IMG/VR virus record: IMGVR_UViG_3300033145_000767
Location: 1-64,000 of that record
Direction: 5' to 3' (one strand)
Origin: a virus
DNA length: 64,000 nt
Of the stretch, positions 6,248 to 62,075 are shown piece after piece. Each line of letters starts with the position of its first letter. Within the stretch, counting starts at the first letter, position 1. A program made the translations under genes and the position numbers. The notes beneath the pieces are model-generated. The model saw nothing but the letters and a program-made list of their open reading frames with translations. It had not been told where the DNA came from and searched no databases.

Positions 6248-6742
6248 ATGAAAAAGTTAAGGCTACTAATAACTGAGGATTGTAATAGGTCTTGCAAAGG
6301 ATGTTGTAATAAAGATTGGGATTTAAAGTCTTTACCTATAAATAAAGGTTATAAAGGCTATAAGGAAATAATGCTTACAGGTGGAGAGCCTATGTTATAC
6401 CCTAATCTTATTATAAAGATATGCAAGGAAATTAGAGAGCAAACTGATTGCCCTATATACCTATATACCGCAAAGGTTGAGGTATTATATGATATATTGG
6501 AAGTAATGTTTAATTTAAGCGGGATTTGTTTAACATTACATGAACAAAAGGATGTAAAACCTTTTATATATTTTAGTAATATGCTAAATCAGCTAGGAGC
6601 TAAAGGCTCTTTTAGGTTAAACATATTTAAAGGGATTAATACATACAATGTAGATTTATCTGCATGGAAGGTAAGAAAAGATATGGTATGGATGAAGAAT
6701 TGTCCTATACCAAAAGATGAAGTTTTTAAAAGGTATAACTAA
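6248..6742 (+). CDS. Minimal radical SAM enzyme (164 aa)
   Basis: DCNRSCKGCC gives the CX3CX2C iron-sulfur motif at residues 12-19, and MLTGGEPMLY (41-50) is the GGEP motif that binds the SAM amino group. At 164 residues it is shorter than the 7-carboxy-7-deazaguanine synthase (QueE) or activase families it resembles, with only about half a barrel. It should cleave SAM to a 5'-deoxyadenosyl radical; the substrate is unknown. It sits behind a possible RNA switch. Confidence 0.8.
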   Translation: MKKLRLLITEDCNRSCKGCCNKDWDLKSLPINKGYKGYKEIMLTGGEPMLYPNLIIKICKEIREQTDCPIYLYTAKVEVLYDILEVMFNLSGICLTLHEQKDVKPFIYFSNMLNQLGAKGSFRLNIFKGINTYNVDLSAWKVRKDMVWMKNCPIPKDEVFKRYN

Positions 6743-8284: not shown

Positions 8285-8420
8285 AAGGCTGTTTAAGGGC
8301 TTTATTTTTAGGGTATATAGTACTTTATACCTCTATAAAGGGGGCTTAAACAGGCTTAAAACAGGCTTAAAACAGGCTATATTATAGGCTATAATACATT
8401 ACAGGCAAGCACAACAGAAA
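8285..8420 (+). repeat. AACAGGC repeat block 1, with long hairpin and 11-bp tandem units
   Basis: Large inverted repeat: CTGTTTAAG 8289-8297 with CTTAAACAG 8345-8353, CTTTAT 8300-8305 with ATAAAG 8335-8340, GGTATA 8312-8317 with TATACC 8326-8331. Then tandem units GGCTTAAACA, GGCTTAAAACA and GGCTTAAAACA (8343-8374), spaced about one helical turn. Related blocks occur at 15940-16110, 19787-19860 and near 3140-3240. It lies directly ahead of the amidoligase cluster. Confidence 0.75.
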
Positions 8421-8431
8421 GGCCCTAAGGA

Positions 8432-8824
8432 ATGAAATTACTTTTTGTATATGGAACTTTAAAGCGCGGTTTCCAACTTAATGGCTATTTAAAAAAGGCT
8501 AGATATTTACAGGATGTTACACTACAAGGTTATACATTATTCCTATATACTAGGCTTAATTTTGCTTACCCATATATGATGAAATCATCAGAGGATGATT
8601 ATGTGAGTGGGGAATTGTGGGAAGTATCAGATTATTCTTTTGCACAAACTAAACTCATGGAATGTCGGGCAGGGTACTGGCATTGTGAATTTAATTCTGA
8701 CATGGGAGTAATAAACTCTTTCATAGTACAAAGGAAATTTCGTAAGGCAGATGAATGTATAGGTAATAATTTTACTAAGGAAATGCAAGATAAGGAGGGT
8801 GTGTATGCCCACAGTAAAAAATAG
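8432..8824 (+). CDS. Gamma-glutamylcyclotransferase-like protein (AIG2/GGCT fold)
   Basis: 130 residues, the usual length of this fold. LLFVYGTLKRG (residues 3-13) is the substrate-binding loop. VSGELWEVSD and KLMECRAGYW match the later strands, with Glu in the position of the family's catalytic acid. Known members release 5-oxoproline from gamma-glutamyl amines or peptides. Here it leads the amidoligase cluster and may trim or recycle gamma-glutamyl products. It overlaps the first amidoligase by 20 bases. Confidence 0.85.
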   Translation: MKLLFVYGTLKRGFQLNGYLKKARYLQDVTLQGYTLFLYTRLNFAYPYMMKSSEDDYVSGELWEVSDYSFAQTKLMECRAGYWHCEFNSDMGVINSFIVQRKFRKADECIGNNFTKEMQDKEGVYAHSKK

Positions 8825-10121
8825 GGGTATTAAGTTAAAAGCAGGTATGAATGTAACTTGCACTATAGATGAAACACATATTCCCAAAGCTAAAATTCAA
8901 TTACAGGATGGGATGTTTTTTATATGTCAAAACAAAAAGAATGGTTCTATGTGCATAGATAGAATGGGATTTAGCTATTCTTGGGCAATAGGAACTGAGA
9001 AAACTCGTGATATACTTTTTCCTGATGAAGTAAAAAACTTGCGTGTTGTTCCCAACAATGGTAAAAATTATTTTACAGAGTGCTTGAACTGTGGGGTAGA
9101 CCTTAAAAGAAAAACAAGCAATTCAGGTTACTGTAAGGAGTGTTTAACAAGTTATAGGCTACATAAGTGCTATAAATGTGGGAAATATTATAGGAACATC
9201 CTAAGATATAATGCATGTGATAAAAGAGTATGTGAAAAATGCATCCCTACCTTACCTAAATGTTTTATATGTGGTATACATATTATCCCTAGATATAAAC
9301 TTTCTACTGGGGAGTTTTGTTGTACTTCTTGTAAGCATATGGAATTTGGTGTTACTCATGGGCATTTTAATAACTTTTCTAGGATGAAACATGAGGGTAA
9401 TGAAAAGAATTATATAGGATTTGAACTAGAGCTGGAGGTAAAAGAAAAACTAAGGCTTGCTTATCGGGGGAAAAATAAGTATAGTAGAGGTGGAGGTGTA
9501 CATTACTCTATAGGCTCTATGTTTATGATGATATTTGAAAAATTAGGGATAAAAAATCAGATATTCTCCGCAACTGATGGCTCACTATCTTGTGGGATTG
9601 AATTCCAGTCAGCCCCTTGTACCTATGCTTATCTAACAAAAAGATTCCCTTTAAAAAAATTCTTTATTCACTTAAAAAAATATTTTTCTTCCTTAAACTC
9701 TTGTGGGTTACATTTTCATATGAGTAGGGAAACACTTACTAATAATGATATATCTAAGCTATTTTTATTTATAGATAATAATAAAGATATACTTTGGAAA
9801 TTATCTTTAAGGGGTAGAAGTGATTATTGCAGCCCTTATACCTTAGATTTTGACTGGAAGAGAAATAAGTTTACCTCCAGTAAACACCTAGCCCTAAATG
9901 TATGCCAACATACTGTGGAGTTCAGGCTATTTAAAGCCCCTGAGACTTTTAAGGATTTTATGGTTGCCCTACAATTTACTAATCTTATGAGGATATTTGT
10001 TCAAGGTAATAGTAAATCCTCTTTTGTACATAGAAACAGATGGGAAGATTTTAAATCAATGGCTAAAGTATACGGATATAACTACTTACTAGAAGGCATA
10101 AAGGAAAGGTGTTCACAATGA
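8805..10121 (+). CDS. Zinc-ribbon amidoligase 1 (438 aa)
   Basis: ATG at 8805 chosen for AAGGAGG seven bases upstream. Residues about 90-180 hold a chain of CxxC pairs forming two or three zinc ribbons. The glutamine-synthetase-like amidoligase domain follows, with GFELELE (G205), DGSLSCGIEFQSAP, the metal-binding HFH of LHFHMS (H303, H305) and VEFRLF (E372-R374). Such enzymes use ATP to join a carboxylate and an amine. Overlaps the next gene by four bases. The substrate is unknown; a protein or peptidoglycan peptide is possible. Confidence 0.88.
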   Translation: MPTVKNRGIKLKAGMNVTCTIDETHIPKAKIQLQDGMFFICQNKKNGSMCIDRMGFSYSWAIGTEKTRDILFPDEVKNLRVVPNNGKNYFTECLNCGVDLKRKTSNSGYCKECLTSYRLHKCYKCGKYYRNILRYNACDKRVCEKCIPTLPKCFICGIHIIPRYKLSTGEFCCTSCKHMEFGVTHGHFNNFSRMKHEGNEKNYIGFELELEVKEKLRLAYRGKNKYSRGGGVHYSIGSMFMMIFEKLGIKNQIFSATDGSLSCGIEFQSAPCTYAYLTKRFPLKKFFIHLKKYFSSLNSCGLHFHMSRETLTNNDISKLFLFIDNNKDILWKLSLRGRSDYCSPYTLDFDWKRNKFTSSKHLALNVCQHTVEFRLFKAPETFKDFMVALQFTNLMRIFVQGNSKSSFVHRNRWEDFKSMAKVYGYNYLLEGIKERCSQ

Positions 10122-11137
10122 AATGTTTTATCTGCGGGGAAAGAGAAAGCTGCAAAAAAGTGGATGGTAAAAGTTTATGTTATGAATGTCGTAACTATTC
10201 TTCCAGCACTTTTAAGTGTTTCCAATGTAATGAGGTTCATCTTACGGAAAATGCTGGGTATACTAGTTGTGATGATGAATCTATGTGTACTAAATGTTTA
10301 GGTATGAAGCAGGAAGACTTTAAAATAATTGAGGATTATAACTATGTACCTAGGAGATACACCTTTTATAAAGAAAAAGGGGAAAGACACCCTTTATTCA
10401 TGGGGTTTGAACTAGAGCTGGAAAGCATAGAGGATGAGGTAGATGATTCACTTATAAAATTAAATAAATTTATATATAAAGAGGAAATATCTAAATACTT
10501 TTATATAAAAAGTGATTCATCCATAGATTATGGGTTTGAAATTGTAAGCTTCCCTGCAACACTTAAGTATATGAAAAAACATTATAAATTGGATAAACTT
10601 TGTAAATTTTTACAAACTATAATGAAGGCGGATGATACCTGTGGTTTCCATGTTCATATACCTAGGAAGACTTTAGCTGTTAAGGAACTTGTTGCCCTGC
10701 AACATTTTGCATATGTTAATAGGGAAGAATTATTTAGTCTTAGTGGGAGAAGGGCAGAGTGGTTTTTATCCACAGATAGGGATGTAAAGGAGGTTTTAAA
10801 AACAGCGGATTGTTTTAGTTTCGTTGAAGTAACAAAAGAGGACATAAGTAAAAGTAAACTTTATAATTATAAATATATAGCCATAGCTCCTAGAGCACAA
10901 ACTATAGAATTTAGATTTTTTGGGAGTAGTTTAAATTCAAAACAAATAAACAACAACTTCCAAGTAATACAAAGTCTAATATCCTATTGCAAAGCTACTA
11001 AGCCTAAAGTAATAGGGGATTACCCTGAATTTAAGCATTTTGAAAAGTTTTTATTAAGGAACGAAAAGTTTGATGCTATTAAACCAATTATTAAAGAGGC
11101 AGGAGAAAAATTATTATGGGGTGTTCACACATATTAG
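10118..11137 (+). CDS. Zinc-ribbon amidoligase 2 (339 aa)
   Basis: ATG at 10118 overlaps the stop of amidoligase 1. Two short zinc ribbons (CFICG..CYEC, CFQC..CTKC) occupy residues 1-70. The amidoligase domain has GFELELE (G96), SSIDYGFEIVSFPAT, FHVHI (H178, H180) and IEFRFF (E264). DGSL of the family is replaced by DSSID, a small change. Paralogue of the flanking amidoligases with the shortest N-terminus. Confidence 0.87.
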   Translation: MKCFICGERESCKKVDGKSLCYECRNYSSSTFKCFQCNEVHLTENAGYTSCDDESMCTKCLGMKQEDFKIIEDYNYVPRRYTFYKEKGERHPLFMGFELELESIEDEVDDSLIKLNKFIYKEEISKYFYIKSDSSIDYGFEIVSFPATLKYMKKHYKLDKLCKFLQTIMKADDTCGFHVHIPRKTLAVKELVALQHFAYVNREELFSLSGRRAEWFLSTDRDVKEVLKTADCFSFVEVTKEDISKSKLYNYKYIAIAPRAQTIEFRFFGSSLNSKQINNNFQVIQSLISYCKATKPKVIGDYPEFKHFEKFLLRNEKFDAIKPIIKEAGEKLLWGVHTY

Positions 11138-11547
11138 GAACTATGCCACAATGTAAGCACAGAATTTTTGAGGATAGGTGTATTTATTGCACAGGGGCAT
11201 GGCGGGAAATATTTACTCATGCATTACATCATATGTGTACTGAATCTATGGATTATAATTTAAGTGATAGTCTGGAAGCCCTTATTCAAAGGACTGAGGT
11301 ATTAGCAACAAGGGATGAAGATGTCTATGTAGATTCGGAGTTACAGTACATACTTAGGTGTTTCAGAGGAGTTAATTTATATGATTTTGAAAGCCTAGCA
11401 ATAATTGCAGAAAGGTGTGGAAGGTCTATTTTGGATATAATATATATTCAATCAAATTATTATGGTAAAGAGGAAGTTAAACATTTTAATTTAAGGCTAA
11501 GGTTTTTGGAGAAAAAATACAAAAAAAAGGAGGTAATAAGTGCTTAA
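11116..11547 (+). CDS. Zinc-knuckle protein within amidoligase cluster (143 aa)
   Basis: CKHRIFEDRCIYCTG near the N-terminus and VYVDSELQYIL...LAIIAERCGRSI later. Paralogue of the protein at 5251-5670. The ATG at 11116 has CAGGAG ten bases upstream; an ATG at 11143 is an alternative. Its position between amidoligases 2 and 3, with overlaps on both sides, suggests an adaptor or regulator for the cluster. Confidence 0.65.
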   Translation: MGCSHILGTMPQCKHRIFEDRCIYCTGAWREIFTHALHHMCTESMDYNLSDSLEALIQRTEVLATRDEDVYVDSELQYILRCFRGVNLYDFESLAIIAERCGRSILDIIYIQSNYYGKEEVKHFNLRLRFLEKKYKKKEVISA

Positions 11548-13483
11548 AATAGGCAGTAGAGTTATTAATAAATCAGGTAATTGCTCCTCGTGGGAAAGCC
11601 CTGTATGGGGAGAAAGAAGGCAGGGTAAAGTAATTGGAACAGTAGTCCAGATAAATAAGAATGGCACACTAAGAGTATTTTGGGATAATCATATAGGTGG
11701 ATTAAGTAGCCGTTCTTACTGTATTTCCAATCAACATATAGTTGAAGTAAAACCCCTAATGATTCCTTTAGGTATTGAAATTTATCTTAAAGATTATGTA
11801 GACTTTCCTGAACATGAAGGTATATATGGTACAGTAGTTCTAAGGAGTGCAAGACTTGGGGTTAAAGTAAAATTTGGAAGAATATCTAAATATGTTAATA
11901 TAAATAATATAGTCCCAAAATCTAATGATATACATAGTAGTTGTATCTATTGTGGGGAGAAGTTAGTAAAGGGAAAAGATAACATTGTATTTTTGAATGG
12001 ATTCTTTGCACATAAATACTGTTCCACTAAATGTATTCATTGTGGGTTAAAAAAAGATATAGTAGTTAGTAAGGATGAGATACATCCTATGAGAAATTTT
12101 TGTGATAGATGTGCTAAAAAACATTATTACTTTAAGTGTGCTATCTGTAAGGAAGTGCAGTATAAGGATGGAATGTTAAAGATACACACAGGGGAGTATT
12201 TTTGTTCTACTTGCATGGAAGAACATATAAGTAATTGTCAGCATTGTGGAGAAGCTGAGTTAAAGGATTCATTAATTTTGATAGGGGGTAGAAAAATATG
12301 TAGGGGTTGTCAAAGGTACATCCAATCATGCAGTATATGTGATGATAAAACAGTACAAGGATCTGAGTTTGATAGGGTTATATACTGCCCTAAGTGTAGG
12401 AAAAAACACTTTGGGGATTGTAGTAGATGTGGTCGTAACCTCCCTACAGGTTCTTTATCAGATTTTACTTTAAATGAGGAAGAATATAAGAAAGTATGTG
12501 CACATTGTAGGAGTAGATTAGAGGAAGACCTTTATATACATAGGTGGAATTATAAGCCTAACAGATACTATTATAGCAAAATGAAATATGATAAAAATCC
12601 CCTTTACTTAGGGTTGGAACTTGAAGTAGAATTACCTAATTGTACCGCTGGGGAAGGGGCAAAAGAAACTATAAAGGCTATTGAATCCTTTGGGGCTAGC
12701 AAATATTTTTATCTAAAACAGGACGGTTCTCTTAGTAGAGGACATAGTTTTGAACTAGTGGGGCAACCTGCAACCCTAGCATTTATAGGAAATAACTATA
12801 AGATATATAATCTATTAAACTTCTTTAAGGAAAAAGGTTATGACTGTGAAACAACTGGACAATGTGGTCTACATGTTCATGTATCTAATAAAGATTTATC
12901 TTTTAGGGATGTAGCAAAAATAAAGATGTTTATATGGAAGCATAAGAATATCCTTGATATATTTGGTAATAAAACTGCATCCTCACAGCAGAGGTATGCA
13001 AAGTATGAACCATATACAATTAAGGAATTTAAGAAAAAATATATGGTAAATTATATTCATACAAAATATATGGCGTGTAACCTAACAAATAATACTTTGG
13101 AATTTAGATTTTGGAAGGCTACATTTGACCACCTAAGATTCCTTGCAACACTATCCTTTAGTGAGGCTATAACCTACTATGTTAAAGATACATCCTTAGC
13201 AAAGATACATTATGGGAAGTTTGGTGATTTTGTTCAGTGGCTGTACAAATCGGAGTATTATCACTTAGTTAAATACTTTAACCTATTAAAACTTTCAGAA
13301 AAAGAGGAAGAGTATATAAAAAATCCGCCTAAAGAAAAAAAGGAAACAAAGAAACAAGAGGCCGTTTGGGACGGGTTTGTTACTAGGAGAGATATTCGTG
13401 TGGAAGTTGAGAGAGTAGAGGAAGTAGGCTATGCAAACCCTATATTTGTACATGAAGAAGAACCTTGTGAGGATGAAGGTTAA
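11540..13483 (+). CDS. Zinc-ribbon amidoligase 3, long form (647 aa)
   Basis: GTG start with AAGGAGG six bases before it. Residues 1-130 are beta-rich and look like two SH3/KOW-type barrels. About 135-330 contain at least five zinc-ribbon units. The amidoligase domain has GLELEVE (G358), QDGSLSRGHSFELVGQPAT, LHVHVS (H445, H447) and LEFRFW (E521). A charged tail of about 50 residues follows. The extra N-terminal domains probably recruit a protein or nucleic-acid target. Longest of the three paralogues. Confidence 0.87.
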   Translation: MLKIGSRVINKSGNCSSWESPVWGERRQGKVIGTVVQINKNGTLRVFWDNHIGGLSSRSYCISNQHIVEVKPLMIPLGIEIYLKDYVDFPEHEGIYGTVVLRSARLGVKVKFGRISKYVNINNIVPKSNDIHSSCIYCGEKLVKGKDNIVFLNGFFAHKYCSTKCIHCGLKKDIVVSKDEIHPMRNFCDRCAKKHYYFKCAICKEVQYKDGMLKIHTGEYFCSTCMEEHISNCQHCGEAELKDSLILIGGRKICRGCQRYIQSCSICDDKTVQGSEFDRVIYCPKCRKKHFGDCSRCGRNLPTGSLSDFTLNEEEYKKVCAHCRSRLEEDLYIHRWNYKPNRYYYSKMKYDKNPLYLGLELEVELPNCTAGEGAKETIKAIESFGASKYFYLKQDGSLSRGHSFELVGQPATLAFIGNNYKIYNLLNFFKEKGYDCETTGQCGLHVHVSNKDLSFRDVAKIKMFIWKHKNILDIFGNKTASSQQRYAKYEPYTIKEFKKKYMVNYIHTKYMACNLTNNTLEFRFWKATFDHLRFLATLSFSEAITYYVKDTSLAKIHYGKFGDFVQWLYKSEYYHLVKYFNLLKLSEKEEEYIKNPPKEKKETKKQEAVWDGFVTRRDIRVEVERVEEVGYANPIFVHEEEPCEDEG

Positions 13484-13511
13484 ACAGGCGATATAACTAG
13501 GAGGATAAAAT

Positions 13512-14540
13512 ATGTGTATGATTTGCGTTAAACCCAAAGGGATAGAGTTTCCCCCAGAAGAACACCTATTAAATTCAGAGAATAGAAATAAGGATGGTAT
13601 AGGTATAGCCTATACAAAGTACATTAAAAATAAAAAAGGAACTACAGTAGTAATTAAAAAGGATTTTAAAGATGCTAAGGATTGTTATGCATGGATGAAG
13701 AAAAATCTTAAAGTAGAGCAGTCTATTATTATCCACCAAAGGTTAGGTACATCAGGCTTATCAGATGAAGGAACAAGACACCCCTTCCCTGTAACAACTG
13801 AATGTGAAATAATGAGGGAAGCAAATCAAAAATGCCCTATAGCCTTTGCTCATAATGGGATATTCTCTGGGCATGGTTCGGATAAAAAGTATAGTGATAG
13901 TATGTTAGTGCTATCAAAGTTCTTTGGAACATTAGGTAATTTAATATTCAACAATGAAAGTGTAAGGGAATTAGTACTAGAATTTGTTGGAAACTTTAAT
14001 AAAATTGTTTTTCTAAAGGCATCTGGAAAAGTTGCAATATTTGGTAGTGGCTGGATAGAACATCCTAATGGTTGTTTATATTCTAATGAAAACTATAGCT
14101 ACACAGTTGTAAAGAAAAAAGCTTATACCCCAACAAATACTTGGGATTCAAGGTCAACATCTAAACCACAATATAATAACCAACAGGGTTGTCTTCCTTA
14201 CTATGGTAAACCTCCTTCAGGACAGCCTAAGAAAAAATATCATTGTGATATGTGTCAACAAGGGAAAAAATCTAAATGGCGTGGAGATTTAGAAATGTAT
14301 GTGTGTTCCAAATGCTACAAATCTATTCACAATGAGGCTACAAAGGATGTACCTATGCTTTCAAGTAGTACCTTGATGTGTCATTACTGTGGAAGTAATC
14401 ATGGTGTGTGGAGATTTGAAATAAAAGAAAATTCATGTAGTAAATGCTTCAGGAATCAACTATGGTTTAAAAATAAGTTAAATGAATTAGAAGCAGGAAT
14501 AATTGACACTACAGGTAAAGTAATAAATGGGAGGAAATGA
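13512..14540 (+). CDS. Class II glutamine amidotransferase with zinc-ribbon tail (342 aa)
   Basis: Cys2 after Met1 (MCMIC) is the expected N-terminal nucleophile. NKDGIGIAY, IIHQRLGTSG, RHPFPV and FAHNGIF are the family's pocket motifs. It hydrolyses glutamine and can pass on ammonia, or uses the same fold for amide transfer. Residues about 245-330 add zinc ribbons (CDMCQQG, CHYCGS, CSKCF) like those of the amidoligases. AGGAGG site at 13499. Placed between amidoligase 3 and the ATP-grasp gene. Confidence 0.87.
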   Translation: MCMICVKPKGIEFPPEEHLLNSENRNKDGIGIAYTKYIKNKKGTTVVIKKDFKDAKDCYAWMKKNLKVEQSIIIHQRLGTSGLSDEGTRHPFPVTTECEIMREANQKCPIAFAHNGIFSGHGSDKKYSDSMLVLSKFFGTLGNLIFNNESVRELVLEFVGNFNKIVFLKASGKVAIFGSGWIEHPNGCLYSNENYSYTVVKKKAYTPTNTWDSRSTSKPQYNNQQGCLPYYGKPPSGQPKKKYHCDMCQQGKKSKWRGDLEMYVCSKCYKSIHNEATKDVPMLSSSTLMCHYCGSNHGVWRFEIKENSCSKCFRNQLWFKNKLNELEAGIIDTTGKVINGRK

Positions 14541-14965
14541 TGATACAAATAAGTAATAGAGATGTATTACAAAGGAGAGTGTTAGAATTAATGCTCTCGG
14601 AGGGCATTAAAGATTTAAAAACAGTTATGGATATTGTATATGCAGAATACGCATATACTAAGGATGCCCTAGTAAATGCCATTTATGATTTATCCACCAA
14701 ATGGTTTATAGAAACAGGTCGGGGAGGTTATAGTGAACCTGATGGAATCTATACTAGGTATCAAGTTATTATGTTTGATAAAAAAGGTAATGTGGAGTCT
14801 ACCCCTATATTTAAAGATGCGGATGATGCCTTAGATATGTATTCAATATGGAGAGATAAGCATATTTTTAATAGATGTAGGGTTGCAAAAATTGACACTC
14901 TCCATAGTAAAATACTAGATGTGTTATTAGATGATTTTGAAGTAGAGGAAGGGGATGATAAATAA
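14537..14965 (+). CDS. Hypothetical protein, possible winged helix (142 aa)
   Basis: Residues 1-60 (ISNRDVLQRRVLELMLSEGI..TKDALVNAIYDLS) look like a helix-turn-helix domain; the rest is mixed alpha/beta. It overlaps the amidotransferase and abuts the ATP-grasp gene. It could regulate the cluster or bind its target. Family not recognised. Confidence 0.65.
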   Translation: MMIQISNRDVLQRRVLELMLSEGIKDLKTVMDIVYAEYAYTKDALVNAIYDLSTKWFIETGRGGYSEPDGIYTRYQVIMFDKKGNVESTPIFKDADDALDMYSIWRDKHIFNRCRVAKIDTLHSKILDVLLDDFEVEEGDDK

Positions 14966-15696
14966 TGAGGATAGTGATGGCACAAGGCGGATGCAAGACA
15001 GCAAAACGATTATCAAAGGTTATAGGATGTCCTGCTAGGTATGGTCTTCCAAAAAAGAAAAAAGTATTTGTTGTTTCCTATGGAAGGGTACTACCTCAAG
15101 CAAATCTTAATAAAAGCATTATACCAAATAAAAGAAAAGCCTTAGAAATCCTTGAGAATAACGGGATAGGTGTGCCTAAAGTTATTGGTAAGCATGAAAT
15201 AAATAATTACCCTGAAGGAGAATTCCCTGTATTAGGTAGAAAAAATCATCATGCTAAAGGTCGGGATATTGTGTTTATAAAAACAAAAGCAGGCCTTGCG
15301 GAAGTTGATAAATCTAACATAGATTATTATGTAAAGTATATTCCTAAATGGGCAGAGTACAGGGTTCATGTCTTAGGTGGAGTAGCAAAGGTAGTTGCTG
15401 TTAAGATACATGATAATAAAGAGGAAGTAAAAAAGCAACCTGTATGGAACTATGATAGTGGCTGGAAACAATTCACTTACAATGGGGGGCATGAACAAAC
15501 CCTTAAAGAATTAGGAGAAAAAGTTATAGAAATTTTAGGTTATGACTTTGGGGCTATAGATATAATAAGAAAAGGTAGGGATTATTATGTGCTTGAAGTT
15601 AATTCAGCTCCAGCTTTAATACCAGAAAGACAAGAAGTGTATGCTAATTATTTTAAAGAAACAGAAAGAGTATGGAAATTAAACGGTAGGAGATAA
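14965..15696 (+). CDS. ATP-grasp ligase (243 aa)
   Basis: The ATP-grasp core ends in FGAIDII..YYVLEVNSAPAL, the Mg-binding D...ExN signature. The middle has PVLGRKNHHAKGRDI (loop over ATP) and YVKYIPKWAEYRVHV. It activates a carboxylate as an acyl-phosphate and joins it to an amine. At 243 residues it is compact, lacking a large N-terminal domain. Adjacent genes supply further amide-forming enzymes, so both probably build one product. Confidence 0.87.
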   Translation: MRIVMAQGGCKTAKRLSKVIGCPARYGLPKKKKVFVVSYGRVLPQANLNKSIIPNKRKALEILENNGIGVPKVIGKHEINNYPEGEFPVLGRKNHHAKGRDIVFIKTKAGLAEVDKSNIDYYVKYIPKWAEYRVHVLGGVAKVVAVKIHDNKEEVKKQPVWNYDSGWKQFTYNGGHEQTLKELGEKVIEILGYDFGAIDIIRKGRDYYVLEVNSAPALIPERQEVYANYFKETERVWKLNGRR

Positions 15697-15697
15697 G

Positions 15698-15934
15698 ATG
15701 ATACAAGCCCCAAAAGAACTTAAAGAAATACACACAAGGAAAAGTTTAAATAGAGGTTGGAAAGTATACTCTTTTAAAGGCAGGGAAGCTGCAGTAAGAG
15801 AACTTAGGAGTACTGATAGGGTACAATTTAATTTTTGTAATCATTGTAATAATAAAGGGGTGTATTTAATCATAGAACTATGGGATATTAAAAGCCACGT
15901 GCAGGAAGTGTGGGCTTGGTGCGGTAAGTGCTAA
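15698..15934 (+). CDS. Small zinc-binding protein ending the cluster (78 aa)
   Basis: CNHC in the middle and CGKC at the very C-terminus make one zinc ribbon. AGGAG site; starts one base after the ATP-grasp stop. The repeat block follows directly, so this is the last gene of the cluster. Confidence 0.65.
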   Translation: MIQAPKELKEIHTRKSLNRGWKVYSFKGREAAVRELRSTDRVQFNFCNHCNNKGVYLIIELWDIKSHVQEVWAWCGKC

Positions 15935-18057: not shown

Positions 18058-19062
18058 ATGAAACCTGTAAATAAACTTTCAGAATTTTTTAAAAACCTTT
18101 GGGGTACAGTAGAGGAGGAGGAAGAACCAACAGTTGAAATAATTGTTCCTACTCATACGACTAAGCCCCTAAGAAAATTTATATTTAGACCAAGGAATCT
18201 ATCTGAATATATAGGTCAGGAAAAAGCTAAGGCTTTGATAAGACTTAATATAAAAAAGATATGTAACATAAAGCCTGTCCATATACTTATAAATGGTAAT
18301 GCTGGGCATGGAAAGACTACTCTTGCCTATGTTATAGTAAATGAATTAAGGTCTAAAATGTACTCAGTTATAGGAAGTAATTTTACAAGGGAAGCTTTGT
18401 TAGATTTTATAAAAGCTAATGAACAGGACTTATATAACTTACACATACTTTTTATAGATGAAATCCACTCTATGTCTAAAGATATGGCAGAAGTATTATA
18501 TCCTATATTAGAAGATTTTAGGCAAGCAGATGTGGATTTAAAACCTTTTGTTATGATTGGAGCAACAACTGAAAAAGCAACTTTAATTAAAAGATTCCAC
18601 CCATTAGTAGATAGGTGTGGATGTCAGATTCATTTAGAATCCTATACTAATTTAGATATTGAAAAAGTATTATCACAATATAGTCAACAGTTATATGAGG
18701 AATATCTAGTACCCATAGATATTATTAAAATATTATCTGCTAGTAGTAAGAATGTTCCTAGAATAGCTATCGCTATGTTAGATGATTACATTGTATGTAA
18801 GGATATAGATATGGTTTTATCAGCACATAGAATGGTTAAGGGAAGTTTAAATGAAATTGATATACAGATATTACTATGTCTAAGAACAAATGGAAAACCT
18901 ATGGGGCAGAAAAATATTTCTACCAAAGTAGGGATAGACCAAGTAGACTATGTATATATGTATGAGCCCTTCCTAATAAAGGAAGACTATATAAATGTAA
19001 CCACAAGGGGCAGGGAGATTACACCTAAAGGCACAGCTGTCCTACAAGAGATAGGGGTTTAA
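18058..19062 (+). CDS. ruvB: RuvB-like Holliday junction branch-migration helicase
   Basis: 334 residues, the length of bacterial RuvB. FRPRNLSEYIGQEKAKA (about 43-59) is the RuvB entry motif, then Walker A NGNAGHGKTT (79-88), Walker B LFIDEIH (131-137) and sensor-1-type MIGATTE. The C-terminal winged helix ends GREITPKGTAVL. A hexamer would drive Holliday junctions, normally with RuvA and RuvC. A RuvC-like resolvase is present at 47934; no RuvA is seen in the window. Phage-borne RuvB is uncommon. Confidence 0.9.
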   Translation: MKPVNKLSEFFKNLWGTVEEEEEPTVEIIVPTHTTKPLRKFIFRPRNLSEYIGQEKAKALIRLNIKKICNIKPVHILINGNAGHGKTTLAYVIVNELRSKMYSVIGSNFTREALLDFIKANEQDLYNLHILFIDEIHSMSKDMAEVLYPILEDFRQADVDLKPFVMIGATTEKATLIKRFHPLVDRCGCQIHLESYTNLDIEKVLSQYSQQLYEEYLVPIDIIKILSASSKNVPRIAIAMLDDYIVCKDIDMVLSAHRMVKGSLNEIDIQILLCLRTNGKPMGQKNISTKVGIDQVDYVYMYEPFLIKEDYINVTTRGREITPKGTAVLQEIGV

Positions 19063-19921: not shown

Positions 19922-20758
19922 ATGAATAATATTGAGGTATTATCTGACTATTGCAATTATTTAACTGTAATGAAAAGCTCCAAGGTATATTATAACTCAC
20001 TTAAAGTATTTTTTAATGAATACCTAATACCAAAAGGTGTTTTTATTGGGGATGTTACTCGGGATAATATAACTGAATACCTTGCAGAAAAAAACTATGC
20101 CTCTAATTCCTTTAATACTTTTATAAAAGCAGGTAGACATTTGTTTAAGAATTACTTAGAGGTGGAAAAAAGTGTGTTCAGTAATATAAAACTTTTAAAA
20201 GTAGAAAGAAAGATACCTGACTATATAACAAAGGAAGAATTAAAACAAGGTGTAAAGTATGCTTTAGTTACTATGGAAAGATACAGTACCAAAAAGATTA
20301 TAGCTGTATTATATTTCATGTTTTATTCAGGTCTTAGAAAAGGAGAGATATTAAACTTAGTTAGAAATGATTTCTCTTTGGAGAAAAGACCTATAGAGGT
20401 TAAAGTAAGAATCCCTACAAAAGGTAAACGAGAAAGAATAGTTTATCTTCCACCCAAGTTAAGGGTAATGCTATATAGATACTTTAATTCAGAGGAAGAA
20501 AAGAATAATGCTTTTAACCTATGCACATCAGGGCTGGATTATTTAGTAAGAATTTTTGCAGATGCAGTCCCAGATAAGAAAATCTCTGCCCATACATTTA
20601 GACATTCATATGCTAAGGATTTAATAAAAGGAGATATAGATGTAACAATAGTATCAAAGCTCCTTGGGCATAAAAATATAGAAACCACTTTAATATATGT
20701 AGACCCAGACGAGGATATGGTAAGGAAAATTTATAAGGATAAAAACATAGGGAGATAA
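19922..20758 (+). CDS. Tyrosine recombinase / integrase
   Basis: 278 residues. A SAM-like core-binding N-terminus (1-95) precedes the catalytic domain, which has the Arg of SGLRKGEILNL, Lys of TKGKRERIV, HTFRHS (His-x-x-Arg), LLGHKN and the nucleophile of TTLIYVD. It cuts and joins DNA through a 3'-phosphotyrosine bond. It could integrate the phage, resolve dimers or act on the nearby repeat blocks. No attachment site can be proved. Confidence 0.93.
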   Translation: MNNIEVLSDYCNYLTVMKSSKVYYNSLKVFFNEYLIPKGVFIGDVTRDNITEYLAEKNYASNSFNTFIKAGRHLFKNYLEVEKSVFSNIKLLKVERKIPDYITKEELKQGVKYALVTMERYSTKKIIAVLYFMFYSGLRKGEILNLVRNDFSLEKRPIEVKVRIPTKGKRERIVYLPPKLRVMLYRYFNSEEEKNNAFNLCTSGLDYLVRIFADAVPDKKISAHTFRHSYAKDLIKGDIDVTIVSKLLGHKNIETTLIYVDPDEDMVRKIYKDKNIGR

Positions 20759-27576: not shown

Positions 27577-28149
27577 ATGATAACTAAAGAATTTTTAGTA
27601 GAACAATATATAAATCAAAAGAAGTCCACCAATTTAATAGGTAAAGAGATTGGTTCTTCTAGTGGGGATGTATATTATTATCTAAAGAAATATGGTATAA
27701 AACTTAGGGATAAAAGCACATTAATGATGGGGAATACCAATTCAAAAGATAGGGTAGTTACAGAAAAGACTAGAAAATTATTAAGCAAAATACATAAAGG
27801 AAAATCGAAATCAGAAGAGCATAAGAAAAAATGTAGCTTAGCACAGATAAAAAGATTTAAGGATAACCCTGAACATGGGGAACACCTAAGAAAAATTAGA
27901 TTAGGTATTAAAATGTCTACAGAACAAAAAGAAAAAATTTCTAAAAGTGTACTTAAAAATAATAAAGTAAAACATCATATATTTGGAAAAGAATATAATG
28001 ACCTAATAGATTTAACTAGAAGTAAACACATGAGTTTACACCATAGTGCTTACTTTTACATACTAGACAAACATGGCAAAGAAGGTATATTAGATTACCT
28101 TAATTGGTTTGATACAAAACATGGGCTAGGAGAAAATTATGGCGTGTAG
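27577..28149 (+). CDS. HNH-type homing endonuclease with NUMOD3 repeats
   Basis: 190 residues. An N-terminal helix-turn-helix (NLIGKEIGSSSGDVYYYLKKYG) precedes NUMOD3-type units (KIHKGKSKSEEHKKK, IRLGIKMSTEQKEKIS). The C-terminal HHIFGKEYNDLIDLTRSKHMSLHHSAYF resembles an H-N-H fold. Overlaps the following radical SAM gene by 11 bases. Confidence 0.8.
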   Translation: MITKEFLVEQYINQKKSTNLIGKEIGSSSGDVYYYLKKYGIKLRDKSTLMMGNTNSKDRVVTEKTRKLLSKIHKGKSKSEEHKKKCSLAQIKRFKDNPEHGEHLRKIRLGIKMSTEQKEKISKSVLKNNKVKHHIFGKEYNDLIDLTRSKHMSLHHSAYFYILDKHGKEGILDYLNWFDTKHGLGENYGV

Positions 28150-29491
28150 TAAAGGATATACTTCCCCAAGAATTTCATCGGAGTATAAGGATTGCGGACT
28201 TATTTTGACTTTTGACCAATACAATATATGTGGTTTTGGTTTTGGGAAACAATGTGCAGGATGTTTGTATTGTTTTAGTAATTCCCAGAAAATAAACCAC
28301 CCAATGTACCAAGAAAAAGCATTTCAAGTAAGGTCAGTAAACCCTGATAAAGTAGTTGACATGCTTACAGGAAAAAGTAAGTCTAAATATTATGATAATT
28401 TCTTTAAATATAGATTCCCCTTTCATTGGGGGGGTTTAGCAGACCCATTCTGTTACATGGAGGAGAAAGAAAGAGTTGGTTTAAAAATATTACAAGGTGC
28501 AAGTAAAGTACAGTATCCTATAATATTCTCTACAAAAGGCACTTTTATGTGCTATGATAAAGAGTATCTTAAAGTATTTGAAAGTTATAAGAAAAGTAAA
28601 AACTTAGGGTTTAGCTTTAGTATAATTACTAATGAAGAAAGTCTTGCAAGTAAAATAGAAAAAGAAGTGCCAACTGTAGAAGAAAGACTTAAAGCAATGA
28701 AAATTCTTTCTGACATGGGCTTTTGGACAGTTCTTAGGCTAAGACCCTTTATGATTGGTATAACAGATATTAACTTAGAAACCCTCTTAGAAAGGGCTAA
28801 AAAGGCCGGTGCAAGGGCAGTATCAACAGAGTTTTATTGCCTAGACCTTAGAAGTTTAAGCACCTTAAATGAAAGACTTAAAGAAATGAATAAAATAACA
28901 GGTCTTGACTATAGAAAATATTATAAAGCTTTATCCCCAAGTAGCAGAGGAACTTACTTGAGATTGAATAGGCTGGCAAAAGAGCCCTATATGAAAAGGT
29001 TACTAAAGAAATGTAAGGAACTAGATTTAAAGGTTTCTATATCAGACCCAGACTTTAAAGAGTTTAATTTTTCTGGGTGTTGCTGTGGCTACCCTGAAAC
29101 TAAAGAAGAATATAATAGTGAAATTTGTAATTGGTCTAAAGGTCAATTAACATATCATTTAACAGAATTAAGAAAAAAGTATTGGTCTGGTTATAGACCT
29201 GCATTATTAACTTGGGACGAGGTTAAAGATACTATAGCTAATGATTGGGCAAGTGATGGGAGATACTTTAAAGATAGTATAAAATATTGGTCAACAGATT
29301 TTAGAAAGAAACAGCAATCACACATAGATGAATTTCTACAGTCATGGAATAGTACTAAGTCAAGTGATAGCCCATACAGTTATTTTGATGGGTTATTAGT
29401 CCCATATAAATTAGACGACAATGGTAATATAGTTTATAAATATGAACCTTCTGATTCTGAGCTTAGATTGCGTAAGGACGGAATTGTATGA
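28139..29491 (+). CDS. Radical SAM protein, spore-photoproduct-lyase-like class
   Basis: 450 residues. QCAGCLYCFSNSQ (C39, C42, C45) is the likely iron-sulfur site, but spaced CX2CX2C rather than the usual CX3CX2C. GGLADPFCYMEEKERVGLKIL and FSTKGTF resemble the SplB-type barrel that follows, and SFSIITNEESLA the next strand. C-terminal CCCGYP may hold a second cluster. It might act on DNA bases or tRNA; the substrate is unknown. AGGAG site inside the upstream endonuclease. Confidence 0.75.
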   Translation: MACSKGYTSPRISSEYKDCGLILTFDQYNICGFGFGKQCAGCLYCFSNSQKINHPMYQEKAFQVRSVNPDKVVDMLTGKSKSKYYDNFFKYRFPFHWGGLADPFCYMEEKERVGLKILQGASKVQYPIIFSTKGTFMCYDKEYLKVFESYKKSKNLGFSFSIITNEESLASKIEKEVPTVEERLKAMKILSDMGFWTVLRLRPFMIGITDINLETLLERAKKAGARAVSTEFYCLDLRSLSTLNERLKEMNKITGLDYRKYYKALSPSSRGTYLRLNRLAKEPYMKRLLKKCKELDLKVSISDPDFKEFNFSGCCCGYPETKEEYNSEICNWSKGQLTYHLTELRKKYWSGYRPALLTWDEVKDTIANDWASDGRYFKDSIKYWSTDFRKKQQSHIDEFLQSWNSTKSSDSPYSYFDGLLVPYKLDDNGNIVYKYEPSDSELRLRKDGIV

Positions 29492-29817: not shown

Positions 29818-30368
29818 TAAACGAAAAAGAAGTTAGTAACTTATTACTAGAAAAAGTTGGTACTCATAGTAGTATCTTTATGTTCAAAGCAAAAGTTATA
29901 TTCGATAAGAAAATAAAAACTTACTGTTGCTTAGAGTATAATGGGAAAAAAGGGTGTCCTAACTATGGTAAAAAGAAAGGGTGTCCACCAAACAATAGAG
30001 ATATAGATGAAGTGCTAGATGTAACAGAAGACATTTATGTATTTGGTATGTCTTTTAACTTAAAGATACACGCAGATGAAATGAAAAAGAAACACCCTAA
30101 GTGGACACAAAGGCAATGCTATAATGTAATATATTGGCAACCAAAGCAGAGAAAGAAATTTAAGATGTTTATAGATAACTTTAAAAAGAAGTACCCTGAA
30201 TTAAGGGTAGACACCTTGCCAGAGGGGCATGGGGTTGATGTAACTAAAATGTTAAAAGATGCAGGTGTAGGTATATCCTGGGACTACCCTTTGGACACAG
30301 TTTGGACAGTTGCAATAGCAGGTAAGAAGGCTAAATATAAAAGAAAAAAGAGGGTTAAAAATGTATAA
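29814..30368 (+). CDS. DUF2284-like metal-binding protein (184 aa)
   Basis: CCLEYNGKKGCPNYGKKKGCPPN has the Cys pattern of the DUF2284 predicted metal-binding family (C..CPNYG..CPP). The C-terminus ends in Lys/Arg. A second such protein occurs at 57914. The biochemical role of the family is not known; an iron-sulfur cluster is likely. Confidence 0.65.
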   Translation: MINEKEVSNLLLEKVGTHSSIFMFKAKVIFDKKIKTYCCLEYNGKKGCPNYGKKKGCPPNNRDIDEVLDVTEDIYVFGMSFNLKIHADEMKKKHPKWTQRQCYNVIYWQPKQRKKFKMFIDNFKKKYPELRVDTLPEGHGVDVTKMLKDAGVGISWDYPLDTVWTVAIAGKKAKYKRKKRVKNV

Positions 30369-31155
30369 GGTATACATTCCTACAAAAGGCAGAGCAAATA
30401 ACTTATACCTAAATAGGTTAGTAGATGTCATTAAGGTAAAACCTATATTAGTTGTAGAACCTCAAGAGTTAGAGGAGTATAATAAAGCATACAAGAATAA
30501 GGTATACTATGAGGTATTAGCTAAAGATAATATGGGGTATAATTACCTTATAAAAAAATTATATAAAACTATAAAGCTATTTAACTTTAATGCTTTTATC
30601 ATTGATGATGATATATGTAATATATACTTAAAAGAAGTGGGGAAGAAAAGGTTAAATCTAGGTATAGAAAACATAAATTTTGCACTAAACTATATATCCT
30701 GTTATACCCCATATGCCCTAACAGGTAGCGTATTTAAACAACACCAATGGGTGTGTGAAACAGATTTTCAAGACTTTGGCAGACCTTCAGCTTTTGTATA
30801 TATAAAAGGCAATGAGATAACGGATGAAGTTTTGTCATATTTCAATAGATATGATATACTTAGTTATAGGCTTAAAGCAGACATTATGTTTGCCACAGCC
30901 TGCTTATATAACGGTTTAAAGATAGGTATGTGTGGTAGATATGGGTTTACTACACCCGATATGGCTAAAAGTAAAGGGGGTTGTTATGATGATTACCAAA
31001 CAGACCAGCAATCTTTATGTAGTAAAGAAATACACAATATAGTAGGTAGTAATTTTTCATCAGTAATACATAGAAGGGGTAGAACAGAAGTAAAGATAGC
31101 ATGGAAAAAGCTATATGATGCAAAAGTAAAAACTAAACAGAACAAACTATTTTAG
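30361..31155 (+). CDS. TET-associated-type glycosyltransferase (GT-A fold)
   Basis: 264 residues. VYIPTKGRANNLYLNRLV...KPILVVEPQELEEY is the start typical of the TET-associated glycosyltransferase group, followed by the DDDIC (FIIDDDICNIY) metal site. The known group is found in phages with modified pyrimidines and glycosylates hydroxymethylated bases. No TET-like dioxygenase or base hydroxylase is seen in the window, so DNA modification is an inference. Confidence 0.75.
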   Translation: MYKVYIPTKGRANNLYLNRLVDVIKVKPILVVEPQELEEYNKAYKNKVYYEVLAKDNMGYNYLIKKLYKTIKLFNFNAFIIDDDICNIYLKEVGKKRLNLGIENINFALNYISCYTPYALTGSVFKQHQWVCETDFQDFGRPSAFVYIKGNEITDEVLSYFNRYDILSYRLKADIMFATACLYNGLKIGMCGRYGFTTPDMAKSKGGCYDDYQTDQQSLCSKEIHNIVGSNFSSVIHRRGRTEVKIAWKKLYDAKVKTKQNKLF

Positions 31156-34702: not shown

Positions 34703-34963
34703 ATGAAAAAAGAATTTAAAATCCCATTTTGGACATTCATGTTCTTTATTATATGCTACTCTAATCAAGGGTTAGCAGGTTTACCAGAACAATGTTTGTA
34801 TTATTTAAAGAGGGAATCTTGGGGTTTGTCAGCTACATCTATAGGCCTTATTGGTATAATAACAGGTCTAGCTTGGTATACAAAGGTCTTGTGGGGCTAT
34901 CTAAATGATTATACTCCGTTAAGAAAAATAAAAATAAGATTTAGAAAAAAAGGAAAGAAATGA
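34703..34963 (+). CDS. Split transporter, N-terminal part (86 aa)
   Basis: Two membrane helices (FWTFMFFIICYSNQGLAGLP and SIGLIGIITGLAWYTKVLWG) followed by GYLNDYTPLRKIK, the G..D..P-[LR]..[KR] loop of major facilitator/BT1-type transporters. It then ends in basic residues. The next gene supplies about ten more helices, so the two together equal one 12-helix carrier. Confidence 0.7.
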   Translation: MKKEFKIPFWTFMFFIICYSNQGLAGLPEQCLYYLKRESWGLSATSIGLIGIITGLAWYTKVLWGYLNDYTPLRKIKIRFRKKGKK

Positions 34964-35991
34964 TTATTAAACTACCTTATAAGTATGAAGTAACTATTGA
35001 AATAACAAAAGACAGGTACTTATCTAAGTACTATTTATATATAGCTTATTCATTGATTATAGCTTGTATACTATATATAGTTACATTTGGCTTAAATATT
35101 GTAAGCCTTATTGTAACAGGGTTACTAATTAATATTGGAATTGCTTTAGCAGATGTAGCAAATGATAAGCAGATGTGTTTAATAGAAAGAGAGCATAATT
35201 TAAAAGGGAAGGTTCAAGCTATTCAATGGGCATCATTAAGTGTATGTAGCTTAGTTGTATCTTTACTTGGGGCATACTTAGCTTCCACATTACCAGAACC
35301 TTTAAATTATAAACTAGCTTATGGTATTTGTATAATAATACCTATAAGTGCATTAATATATTTGAGAACAAAATATTTTGAAGAGCCTGTAAAAGAAGTT
35401 AAGAAGTTTACTTTAAGTGTATTTAGATATTTGAAAAATAAAGACTTCTTACTTGGTCTAGCCTTTATAGTTTTACTTAGGTTTAGCCCATCCTTTGGTA
35501 CAGGGCTTATGATTAAATGCAGAGAAGAATTATTTATTGGTAAGATGTTCCTAGGTTATGTTGGGGCATTGGGTACAGTAGTAGGTATGGTAGGTTATGG
35601 CTTATATTATTGGAAAGCACATAAGTTTCCTATTAAAAAAATGTTATATTTTACAATAGTATTTGGGGCTATAACAAGTCTTTTCTACCTATATCTGCCT
35701 AGTAAGTGGTTTTTAGTTGCTTACAGTCTATTATTTGGGGCATTTGAGGGTATATCTTTCTTAGCTGTTATGTCCTTCATGGTTAAGATATTACCTACTG
35801 GAAGTGAAGCTATGTTTTATGCATTAGTTACATCAGCTAATAACTTATCTAGTAGATTAGGTAGTGCATTTGGTGGTATAATATATGATAACTTTGGCTA
35901 TAATATGAATGTAGTAGTAGCAAGTTTGTGCACTTTTTTATGCATATTCATAATCCCACACTTAAAAATAGAGGAGATACCTAATGAGTAA
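34960..35991 (+). CDS. Split transporter, main part (343 aa)
   Basis: ATGA overlap with the N-terminal part. About ten membrane helices (YLYIAYSLIIACILYIVTFG to VVVASLCTFLCIFIIP). ALADVANDKQMCLIE and FEGISFLAVMSFMVK sit in loops as in folate-biopterin/MFS carriers. Its first 25 residues (KLPYKYEVTIEITKDRYL) are an extra soluble strand pair at the join. The substrate is unknown. Confidence 0.7.
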   Translation: MIIKLPYKYEVTIEITKDRYLSKYYLYIAYSLIIACILYIVTFGLNIVSLIVTGLLINIGIALADVANDKQMCLIEREHNLKGKVQAIQWASLSVCSLVVSLLGAYLASTLPEPLNYKLAYGICIIIPISALIYLRTKYFEEPVKEVKKFTLSVFRYLKNKDFLLGLAFIVLLRFSPSFGTGLMIKCREELFIGKMFLGYVGALGTVVGMVGYGLYYWKAHKFPIKKMLYFTIVFGAITSLFYLYLPSKWFLVAYSLLFGAFEGISFLAVMSFMVKILPTGSEAMFYALVTSANNLSSRLGSAFGGIIYDNFGYNMNVVVASLCTFLCIFIIPHLKIEEIPNE

Positions 35992-46788: not shown

Positions 46789-47030
46789 TAAGAGGCTTTA
46801 TATTAACAGGGCATCCCTGCCAATACAAATATTATATTAAACTTCAGAAACTTAAGAGTAAAGAGTTTCCTGAACTGAAAAGTATTAAACAACTTAGGGA
46901 TAACCCTCAAGCAATATTAATAGAAGTAGGTACTTATTGGTTACACCCCATATATGAAAGGGTACAGACATGGCAAAGAAAAGAAAATCTAAAGAACCAG
47001 AAGTGGTTGAACAGGGTAAAGAGAAACTAG
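46785..47030 (+). CDS. Hypothetical protein overlapping recA start (81 aa)
   Basis: MIRGFILTGHPCQYKYYIKL; four-base overlap upstream. Its last 61 bases overlap the start of the recombinase gene. Its stretch up to 46969 looks coding; the overlap could be real or the gene could end functionally earlier. Confidence 0.5.
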   Translation: MIRGFILTGHPCQYKYYIKLQKLKSKEFPELKSIKQLRDNPQAILIEVGTYWLHPIYERVQTWQRKENLKNQKWLNRVKRN

Positions 47031-56111: not shown

Positions 56112-56626
56112 TGAGAAAAGAACCTAAATGGAAATATTTTGTAAGAATGGCTCACTTCTTAATGGGTAGGTTTGGTTTTGATAAGCCCTTAGTTGTGGTA
56201 CGAGATAATAGAATTGATTGTCCCTGCTGTGTAGATGATTGGAATGACGCAGAAAAGATTAAAATTCAATACCACTCAAGAAGACTTGGGCGGGTTCCTT
56301 ACTGTTATGTACTTAGTTTCTTACTACACGAAATAGGTCATTTAGTTAATGAAATGCCTTATGCTACAGATATGGAAGTAATTGAAAGCGAAAGGGAAGC
56401 AGAACGATTCTCTAATGAAACCATTAAAGAAGAGTACCCTGAAGTATACAAACAAATGATAAAGGAGATGAGAAAAAGAAAAAGCTTAGTAAAAATATTT
56501 AGAGAAAAAACCTGTAGAAACCCATACTATTGGGCATACAAAGAATTAAAAGAGTATAAAATAACTACATCAAAGGAGGATAAGAAATGGTTAAGAAAAA
56601 AAGAGAGCCAATTAAAATCCCTGTAG
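56111..56626 (+). CDS. HEXXH zinc metalloprotease-like protein (171 aa)
   Basis: LLHEIGHLVNEMPYATDMEVIESEREAERF gives the HEXXH site and a following Glu as third ligand, as in small phage and SprT-like peptidases. A CPCC site near residue 37 may bind another zinc. Overlaps the ClpP-like gene, so two proteases are translated together. Confidence 0.75.
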   Translation: MRKEPKWKYFVRMAHFLMGRFGFDKPLVVVRDNRIDCPCCVDDWNDAEKIKIQYHSRRLGRVPYCYVLSFLLHEIGHLVNEMPYATDMEVIESEREAERFSNETIKEEYPEVYKQMIKEMRKRKSLVKIFREKTCRNPYYWAYKELKEYKITTSKEDKKWLRKKESQLKSL

Positions 56627-61908: not shown

Positions 61909-62075
61909 AAACATTGCATGAATGTGTAAGTAGCTGGTATTGTACTAATTATGTAATTTGCCCTATATGCAAATGTAGAGCAGGGTATGATGTGATGTAT
62001 GATAGTGAAACAAAGAAGGTATTTAAGTGCAAATGTAATAAAGGGTTAAAACAAATAAAGGATGAAAATGCATAA
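61905..62075 (+). CDS. Zinc-ribbon protein (56 aa)
   Basis: CPICKCRAGYDVMYD..FKCKCNKG: two Cys clusters. Four-base overlap upstream and eight downstream. Function unknown. Confidence 0.6.
   Translation: MKTLHECVSSWYCTNYVICPICKCRAGYDVMYDSETKKVFKCKCNKGLKQIKDENA

What the first reader, a model, noticed from the sequence alone, without database searches (positions are those of the whole stretch)
8432..15934. Phage amidoligase system: GGCT, three amidoligases, class II amidotransferase and ATP-grasp in one operon
Seen: eight overlapping or adjacent genes, including YGTLKRG (GGCT), three GFELELE/GLELEVE..HxHxx..EFR amidoligases, an MCMIC-started amidotransferase and an ExN ATP-grasp. Known: comparative work on amidoligases has linked these families in bacterial and phage operons predicted to make amide-linked peptides or protein tags. 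Inference: the phage builds a gamma-glutamyl or similar amide tag on a protein, lipid or cell-wall peptide, perhaps to alter the host or evade defence. Three paralogues in one phage cluster seem unusual.
Basis: partly seen in the sequence, partly recalled or inferred. Interest (0 to 1): 0.87.

Follow-up and report, generated by a model that had tools for sequence, protein, structure and literature searches.

The report
Phage amide-bond enzyme operon
A virus of bacteria carries a nine-gene operon of enzymes that make and break amide bonds; it is a three-ligase version of a cassette already known in many phages and suspected, but never shown, to alter the host cell wall.

Summary
Window 8432-15934 is a tight nine-gene (not eight) operon: gamma-glutamylcyclotransferase (GGCT), three amidoligases, a class II glutamine amidotransferase (GAT), a RimK-like ATP-grasp ligase and three small genes. 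The amidoligases share 23-26% identity, all keep the 12 residues invariant across 48 relatives, and the most divergent is predicted to have a glutamine-synthetase fold (closest solved: YbdK, Dop, GS).

The gene set is not new. phiEco32, LUZ24-like and RIO-1-like podoviruses carry GGCT + GAT + ATP-grasp + amidoligases, published as a "peptidoglycan modification cassette" hypothesised to block superinfection. This is a divergent variant: it lacks their PF14395 ligase, has three zinc-finger amidoligases instead, and sits in a non-podoviral 90-kb record.

Relatives show the core is an amidoligase-GAT pair (73 of 80 viral loci; 31 of 34 sequence clusters); GGCT and ATP-grasp are usually absent. Several paralogues per phage are uncommon but not unique; one contig has four amidoligases and four GATs.

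Most likely the AL3-GAT pair uses glutamine-derived ammonia to amidate a carboxylate, while AL1, AL2 and ATP-grasp form further amide bonds and GGCT trims gamma-glutamyl groups. The substrate (peptidoglycan, protein or DNA base) is unproven.

The parts
8337..8431 (+). Only sizeable intergenic space ahead of the operon, with an 11-bp-period direct repeat (AAACAGGCTTA, 8337-8378) and a promoter-like TTAAAA-17-TATAAT (8367-8395); candidate operon promoter
   Evidence: promoter-like sites are no more frequent than in shuffles, so inference only
8432..8824 (+). GGCT / AIG2-like gamma-glutamylcyclotransferase; YGTLKRG motif; likely catalytic Glu83 (placement ambiguous)
   Evidence: PF06094 E=1.1e-10; phrog_2520 1.9e-7; PDB 1v30 1.1e-5, alignment places E83 on a glutamate of that protein, but the alignment puts Ala at the phage-family glutamate
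8799..10121 (+). AL1: amidoligase (GS fold) with N-terminal Cys-rich zinc-finger array (6 CxxC); probable true start ATG 8805
   Evidence: PHROG amidoligase hits; 12 invariant residues kept; AlphaFold2 pLDDT 86, Foldseek YbdK/Dop/GS
10109..11137 (+). AL2: amidoligase with N-terminal zinc-finger region (4 CxxC); probable true start ATG 10118
   Evidence: PF12224 4.7e-8; phrog_16683 1.1e-18
11116..11547 (+). Small ORF (143 aa) of unknown family
   Evidence: no significant Pfam, PHROG or PADLOC match
11540..13483 (+). AL3: amidoligase with a long N-terminal region (poorly modelled beta-rich part, then 11 CxxC, LIM-like); directly followed by the GAT, as in relatives
   Evidence: phrog_16683 3.2e-31; Foldseek YbdK 1.2e-5, GS 1.9e-5, weak LIM hits; zinc Cys 233/236/254/257 invariant or nearly so in 28 homologues
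13512..14540 (+). GAT: class II (Ntn) glutamine amidotransferase, nucleophile Cys2, with C-terminal CxxC zinc-finger part
   Evidence: profile of 34 homologues matches GlmS/PurF structures; M1, C2, H75, R77, G82, N115, G116, D129 invariant
14537..14965 (+). Small ORF (142 aa) of unknown family
14965..15696 (+). RimK-like ATP-grasp amide ligase (DFGAID...LEVNSAP)
   Evidence: phrog_2599 2.6e-22, PF08443 over cut-off, TIGR00768 weak; 38% identical to L012 homologue
15698..15934 (+). Small ORF (78 aa) with two CxxC motifs

Best explanation
This is a phage amide-bond-forming module of the phiEco32/LUZ24/RIO-1 kind. Shown (by sequence and predicted structure): enzyme classes, intact catalytic residues, operon structure, conserved pairing of amidoligase with class II glutaminase. 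Inferred: AL3 and GAT form a two-part glutamine-dependent amidotransferase. GAT Cys2 releases ammonia from glutamine; AL3 activates a carboxylate as acyl phosphate with ATP, as glutamine synthetase does, and amidates it. AL1 and AL2, without GAT partners, either share this ammonia or join amino acids or amines to carboxylates; the RimK-like ATP-grasp adds an amino acid; GGCT removes gamma-glutamyl groups as 5-oxoproline to trim or recycle. The likeliest target is the host's peptidoglycan stem peptide or its precursor, changing the envelope during infection, for example against superinfection. The zinc-finger arrays probably dock the enzymes on each other or on a macromolecular substrate.
For: Gene classes. 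All 12 residues invariant in 48 amidoligases kept in AL1-3. GAT directly follows an amidoligase in 73 of 80 viral loci and 31 of 34 clusters at 60% identity; 77 of 78 GAT ORFs abut an amidoligase; L013 has four of each. Loci fetched by the ATP-grasp alone carry amidoligase + GAT in 7 of 10 (one of the seven, L093, is the same record as L012). phiEco32 and LUZ24 have amidoligase, GAT, ATP-grasp and GGCT in one module, in the order amidoligase-GAT-ATP-grasp as here. Literature hypothesis of peptidoglycan modification and superinfection exclusion (PMC5498523; PMC11945000; PMC6256558; PMC10580990). Phages with an amidoligase, most with a GAT beside it, infect hosts as far apart as E. coli, Pseudomonas, mycobacteria, OM43 bacteria, Clostridioides and Christensenellales, which favours a universal target such as peptidoglycan. 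The same phage encodes another envelope-type cluster (TagD-like cytidylyltransferase, LicD-glycosyltransferase).
Against: No substrate or activity has been measured here, and none was found in the papers read. Zinc-finger arrays are unusual for peptidoglycan-precursor enzymes and absent from the phiEco32 and LUZ24 amidoligases. The PF14395 ligase of the classical modules is missing. No peptidoglycan-binding domain was found by Pfam in these proteins, although precursor modification would be cytosolic. The host is unknown.
Confidence: 0.5

Rival explanations
1. Protein tagging: the amidoligases and ATP-grasp attach amino acids, a short peptide or ammonia to side chains or termini of host or phage proteins (as RimK, Pup ligase or tubulin ligases do), with the zinc fingers recruiting the target protein.
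For: Zinc-finger arrays (LIM-like hits, weak) precede 80 of 92 related amidoligase domains; LIM-type arrays usually bind proteins. Dop, a depupylase of the same fold, is among the best structural matches. The ATP-grasp is RimK-like.
Against: GGCT and a GAT are not parts of known protein-tagging systems; no tag peptide or cognate protease was identified in the operon; classical modules lack the zinc fingers.
Confidence: 0.25
2. DNA base hypermodification: the ligases amidate a carboxylated base in phage DNA, as phage CmoY ligates glycine to 5-carboxymethylcytosine.
For: Direct precedent for phage amide ligases on DNA, some with a glutaminase domain (PMC12783734); zinc fingers suit nucleic acids; this phage has a TAGT / glucosyl-HMC glucosyltransferase-like gene at 30361-31155 and a radical SAM gene at 28139-29491, suggestive of other base modification.
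Against: No CmoA or C5 cytosine methyltransferase in the 90-kb record; CmoY is an asparagine-synthetase homologue, not of the GS fold; GGCT has no role there; the TAGT gene is 15 kb away.
Confidence: 0.1
3. Small-molecule metabolism: the operon makes or recycles gamma-glutamyl amines, polyamine amides or glutamine during infection, as gamma-glutamylpolyamine or GCS-type ligases do.
For: Fold matches to YbdK (gamma-glutamyl-cysteine ligase-like) and gamma-glutamylmethylamide synthetase; GGCT classically acts on small gamma-glutamyl compounds.
Against: Three diverged ligases with zinc-finger arrays are excessive for a small substrate; GGCT is absent from 47 of 49 relatives searched (many are fragments).
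Confidence: 0.15

Closest known systems
Phage peptidoglycan-modification cassette of phiEco32, LUZ24-like, RIO-1/PSA-HP1-like podoviruses (Iyer et al. 2009; Hardies et al. 2013, both known here only through citing papers)
   Same: GGCT, class II GAT, RimK-like ATP-grasp and Amidoligase_2 in one module beside replication genes; in LUZ24 the same order amidoligase-GAT-small gene-ATP-grasp
   Different: No PF14395 COOH-NH2 ligase; three Amidoligase_2-type ligases instead of one; amidoligases carry N-terminal zinc-finger arrays that phiEco32 gp84 and LUZ24 gp18 lack; the record has a tape-measure gene, so not a podovirus
L012/L093 (IMGVR_UViG_3300037493_003182), nearest relative found
   Same: Two amidoligases + GAT + ATP-grasp followed by a RuvB-like ATPase of the type at window 18058-19062; best AL match 36%, ATP-grasp 38% identity
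   Different: No GGCT found, two amidoligases not three; interspersed with a repeated family of ~100-aa small proteins
Amidoligase-GAT pairs of mycobacteriophage Marvin, OM43 phages MEP401/402 and viral contigs
   Same: Adjacent amidoligase then class II GAT
   Different: Usually no ATP-grasp and no GGCT found
MurT-GatD / glutamine-dependent peptidoglycan amidation (cellular)
   Same: Proposed logic: glutaminase feeds ammonia to an ATP-dependent ligase that amidates a carboxylate (established knowledge; PMC3267633 abstract)
   Different: MurT-GatD is a Mur-ligase fold with a class I glutaminase; no homology

Membership tests
Phage peptidoglycan-modification module (phiEco32/LUZ24/RIO-1 type) | Amidoligase_2 (PF12224) gene | tested here: met
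   three copies; AL2 above Pfam cut-off, AL1 and AL3 by PHROG profiles, motifs and fold
Phage peptidoglycan-modification module (phiEco32/LUZ24/RIO-1 type) | Class II glutamine amidotransferase | tested here: met
Phage peptidoglycan-modification module (phiEco32/LUZ24/RIO-1 type) | ATP-grasp ligase (RimK-like) | tested here: met
Phage peptidoglycan-modification module (phiEco32/LUZ24/RIO-1 type) | GGCT | tested here: met
   PF06094 1.1e-10; catalytic Glu placement ambiguous
Phage peptidoglycan-modification module (phiEco32/LUZ24/RIO-1 type) | COOH-NH2 ligase PF14395 | tested here: not met
   absent from the 90-kb record (which may be incomplete) while found in phiEco32, LUZ24 and GAP52 in the same search. 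Hence filed as a variant, not a plain member
Phage peptidoglycan-modification module (phiEco32/LUZ24/RIO-1 type) | Acts on peptidoglycan | not testable with these tools
   hypothesis only in the papers read
Amidoligase_2 / GS-fold COOH-NH2 ligases | Glutamine-synthetase fold | tested here: met
   AL1 model: YbdK, Dop, GS best PDB matches; AL3 likewise; AL2 not modelled
Amidoligase_2 / GS-fold COOH-NH2 ligases | Conserved GxExE, D, E, GxHxH, TxExR residues | tested here: met
Class II (Ntn) glutamine amidotransferases | N-terminal Cys nucleophile, HxR, NG and D motifs | tested here: met
Known anti-phage defence systems (PADLOC) | Match to a PADLOC protein model | tested here: not met
   no match for any of nine proteins

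The most novel reading that the evidence does not exclude
The zinc-finger amidoligase-GAT pairs are a widespread phage enzyme class that amidates or peptide-tags a macromolecule other than peptidoglycan (a host protein or phage DNA base), with each paralogue and its finger array aimed at a different target; this phage would then carry three such tools.
Probability: 0.2. Interest if true: 0.8.

Novelty: new variant of a known kind. Interest (0 to 1): 0.36.

Why it matters
Phage amidoligase modules are common (at least 526 viral stretches encoding relatives) and have been predicted to remodel the host since 2009, yet I found no paper that measured a product. The survey here narrows the question: the conserved core is a two-gene amidoligase-GAT pair, with GGCT and ATP-grasp as occasional additions. 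That pair is small enough to express and assay directly.

Tried and rejected
Direct homologues: nucleotide search of phages gave nothing; single-protein scans of viral contigs with AL3, GAT and ATP-grasp found none, so alignments were used. Profile search of PDB sequences with the amidoligase alignment gave nothing; the fold comparison was needed. The genome-contig scan with the ATP-grasp alignment returned one partial match in a MAG, so the host remains unknown. Defence system: rejected. CmoA/CmoX-type DNA modification: no CmoA or C5 methyltransferase. Dead GGCT: considered because one alignment puts Ala at the catalytic Glu; the solved-structure alignment keeps Glu83, left open. Recent triplication of the amidoligases: rejected, they are 23-26% identical and AL1 groups apart from AL2/AL3, with L089 (long branches). 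A trustworthy operon promoter: the promoter-like site is within chance expectation.
Full report
What is there. The window is 64 kb of a 90,469-base viral record. Between 8432 and 15934 lie nine + strand genes that overlap or abut: GGCT, AL1, AL2, a 143-aa gene, AL3, a class II glutamine amidotransferase (GAT), a 142-aa gene, an ATP-grasp ligase and a 78-aa gene. Family searches support GGCT, AL2 and the ATP-grasp above Pfam's cut-offs; AL1 and AL3 fall below Pfam's cut-off but match PHROG amidoligase families strongly. GAT is hardly visible alone but a profile of 34 relatives matches solved GlmS and PurF; all start Met-Cys (or an alternative start then Cys) and keep the class II residues.

Are the enzymes intact? 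Across 48 amidoligases twelve residues are invariant (GxExE, D, E, P, GxHxH, TxExR) and all three window paralogues keep them. AL1, the most divergent, models at pLDDT 86 and its best solved matches are YbdK, the depupylase Dop and glutamine synthetases. AL3's catalytic part gives the same. AL2 was not modelled, but is the clearest by sequence. GGCT probably keeps its catalytic glutamate, with a three-residue ambiguity.

Architecture. Each amidoligase domain is preceded by a Cys-rich array (6, 4 and 11 CxxC motifs; for AL1 and AL3 more than any of 2,000 shuffles, for AL2 equal to the highest shuffle). 80 of 92 related ORFs have at least two such motifs ahead of the domain, and four cysteines are invariant or nearly so in 28 full-length homologues. 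phiEco32 gp84 and LUZ24 gp18 have none.

Comparative survey. One scan gave at least 526 viral stretches encoding relatives; the best 80 were kept, so the sample leans towards close kin. In 73 of 80 (31 of 34 clusters) a GAT directly follows an amidoligase, and 77 of 78 GATs abut one. Ten loci have two or more amidoligases (nine clusters); L013 has four amidoligases and four GATs. In 49 records searched whole GGCT occurs in 2 and the ATP-grasp in 1; many of these records are fragments. Fetching loci by the ATP-grasp alone, 7 of 10 carry amidoligase and GAT. So the genes are linked, with a strict pair at the core and looser additions. The nearest relative, L012, has amidoligase-GAT-amidoligase-ATP-grasp followed by a RuvB-like ATPase of the type that also lies downstream in the window. 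The paralogues are old: 23-26% identical, AL1 grouping with an L089 protein, AL2 and AL3 falling near L012-L014 (long branches make these placements uncertain).

Prior art. phiEco32 and LUZ24 carry COOH-NH2 ligase, amidoligase, GAT, ATP-grasp and GGCT in one module, also reported for UFV-P2 (PMC3890496), PSA-HP1 and RIO-1 ("peptidoglycan modification cassette", PMC5498523), phiM6 (PMC6256558) and a LUZ24-like phage (PMC11945000). C. clostridioforme prophages have two amidoligase genes and GGCT (PMC11318856). The function, cell-wall change against superinfection, is attributed to Iyer et al. 2009, which I could not read; no experiment was found. The window differs: PF14395 is absent while the same search finds it in three classical phages, and three zinc-finger amidoligases are present. 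I therefore file it as a variant.

Mechanism. The strict amidoligase-GAT pairing, with four of each in L013, argues that they form one glutamine-dependent amidotransferase: glutaminase supplies ammonia, the GS-fold ligase activates and amidates a carboxylate. In the window only AL3 has this partner. AL1, AL2 and the ATP-grasp would form other amide bonds and GGCT trim gamma-glutamyl groups. The hosts of relatives are diverse, which favours a universal target such as peptidoglycan; the zinc fingers argue for docking on a macromolecule and keep protein tagging alive; DNA base amidation has a recent precedent with a different enzyme (PMC12783734) but its partner genes are missing here. All substrate assignments are inference.

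Verdict. Real, well observed, intact by the tests available, and a clear relative of a known but, as far as I could find, biochemically untested phage cassette. Its special features, three ligases with finger arrays and no PF14395 ligase, make it a new variant of moderate interest.

Noticed in passing
window 57225-60767 (and 62062-62826): Apparent second envelope-related cluster: SDR reductase, DUF2284 protein, TagD-like glycerol-3-phosphate cytidylyltransferase (58396-58848, TIGR01518 8e-20 but below cut-off), LicD-glycosyltransferase fusion (58848-60767) and a GT2 glycosyltransferase. Suggests phage-encoded decoration of surface polymers.
   Followed up: partly
window 30361-31155: Glycosyltransferase resembling TAGT (PF20691) and beta-glucosyl-HMC alpha-glucosyltransferase (phrog_842 1e-15), suggesting glucosylated DNA bases.
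   Followed up: no
window 19922-20758: Tyrosine recombinase/integrase (phrog_1 3e-35), so the phage may be temperate.
   Followed up: no
window 34960-35991: Major facilitator superfamily transporter of 343 aa, unusual cargo for a phage.
   Followed up: no
window 6248-6742 and 28139-29491: Two radical SAM-type proteins, the second resembling the PA0069/Rv2578c family.
   Followed up: no
window 56587-57222: ClpP-like protease (PF00574 2.8e-30) among non-structural genes.
   Followed up: no
window 46970-47950 and L010 644-1261: Two RecA-like genes in one phage record.
   Followed up: no
window 8337-8378: Short direct repeat with 11-base period directly before the operon's candidate promoter.
   Followed up: partly
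L012 7083-15025: A family of ~100-aa proteins with a shared C-terminus (KRPRKRTPPIKRKGYALWIHNIE) alternates with the amidoligase-module genes, about six copies.
   Followed up: no
L013 1-12058: Four amidoligases and four GATs in about 12 kb of one viral contig.
   Followed up: partly
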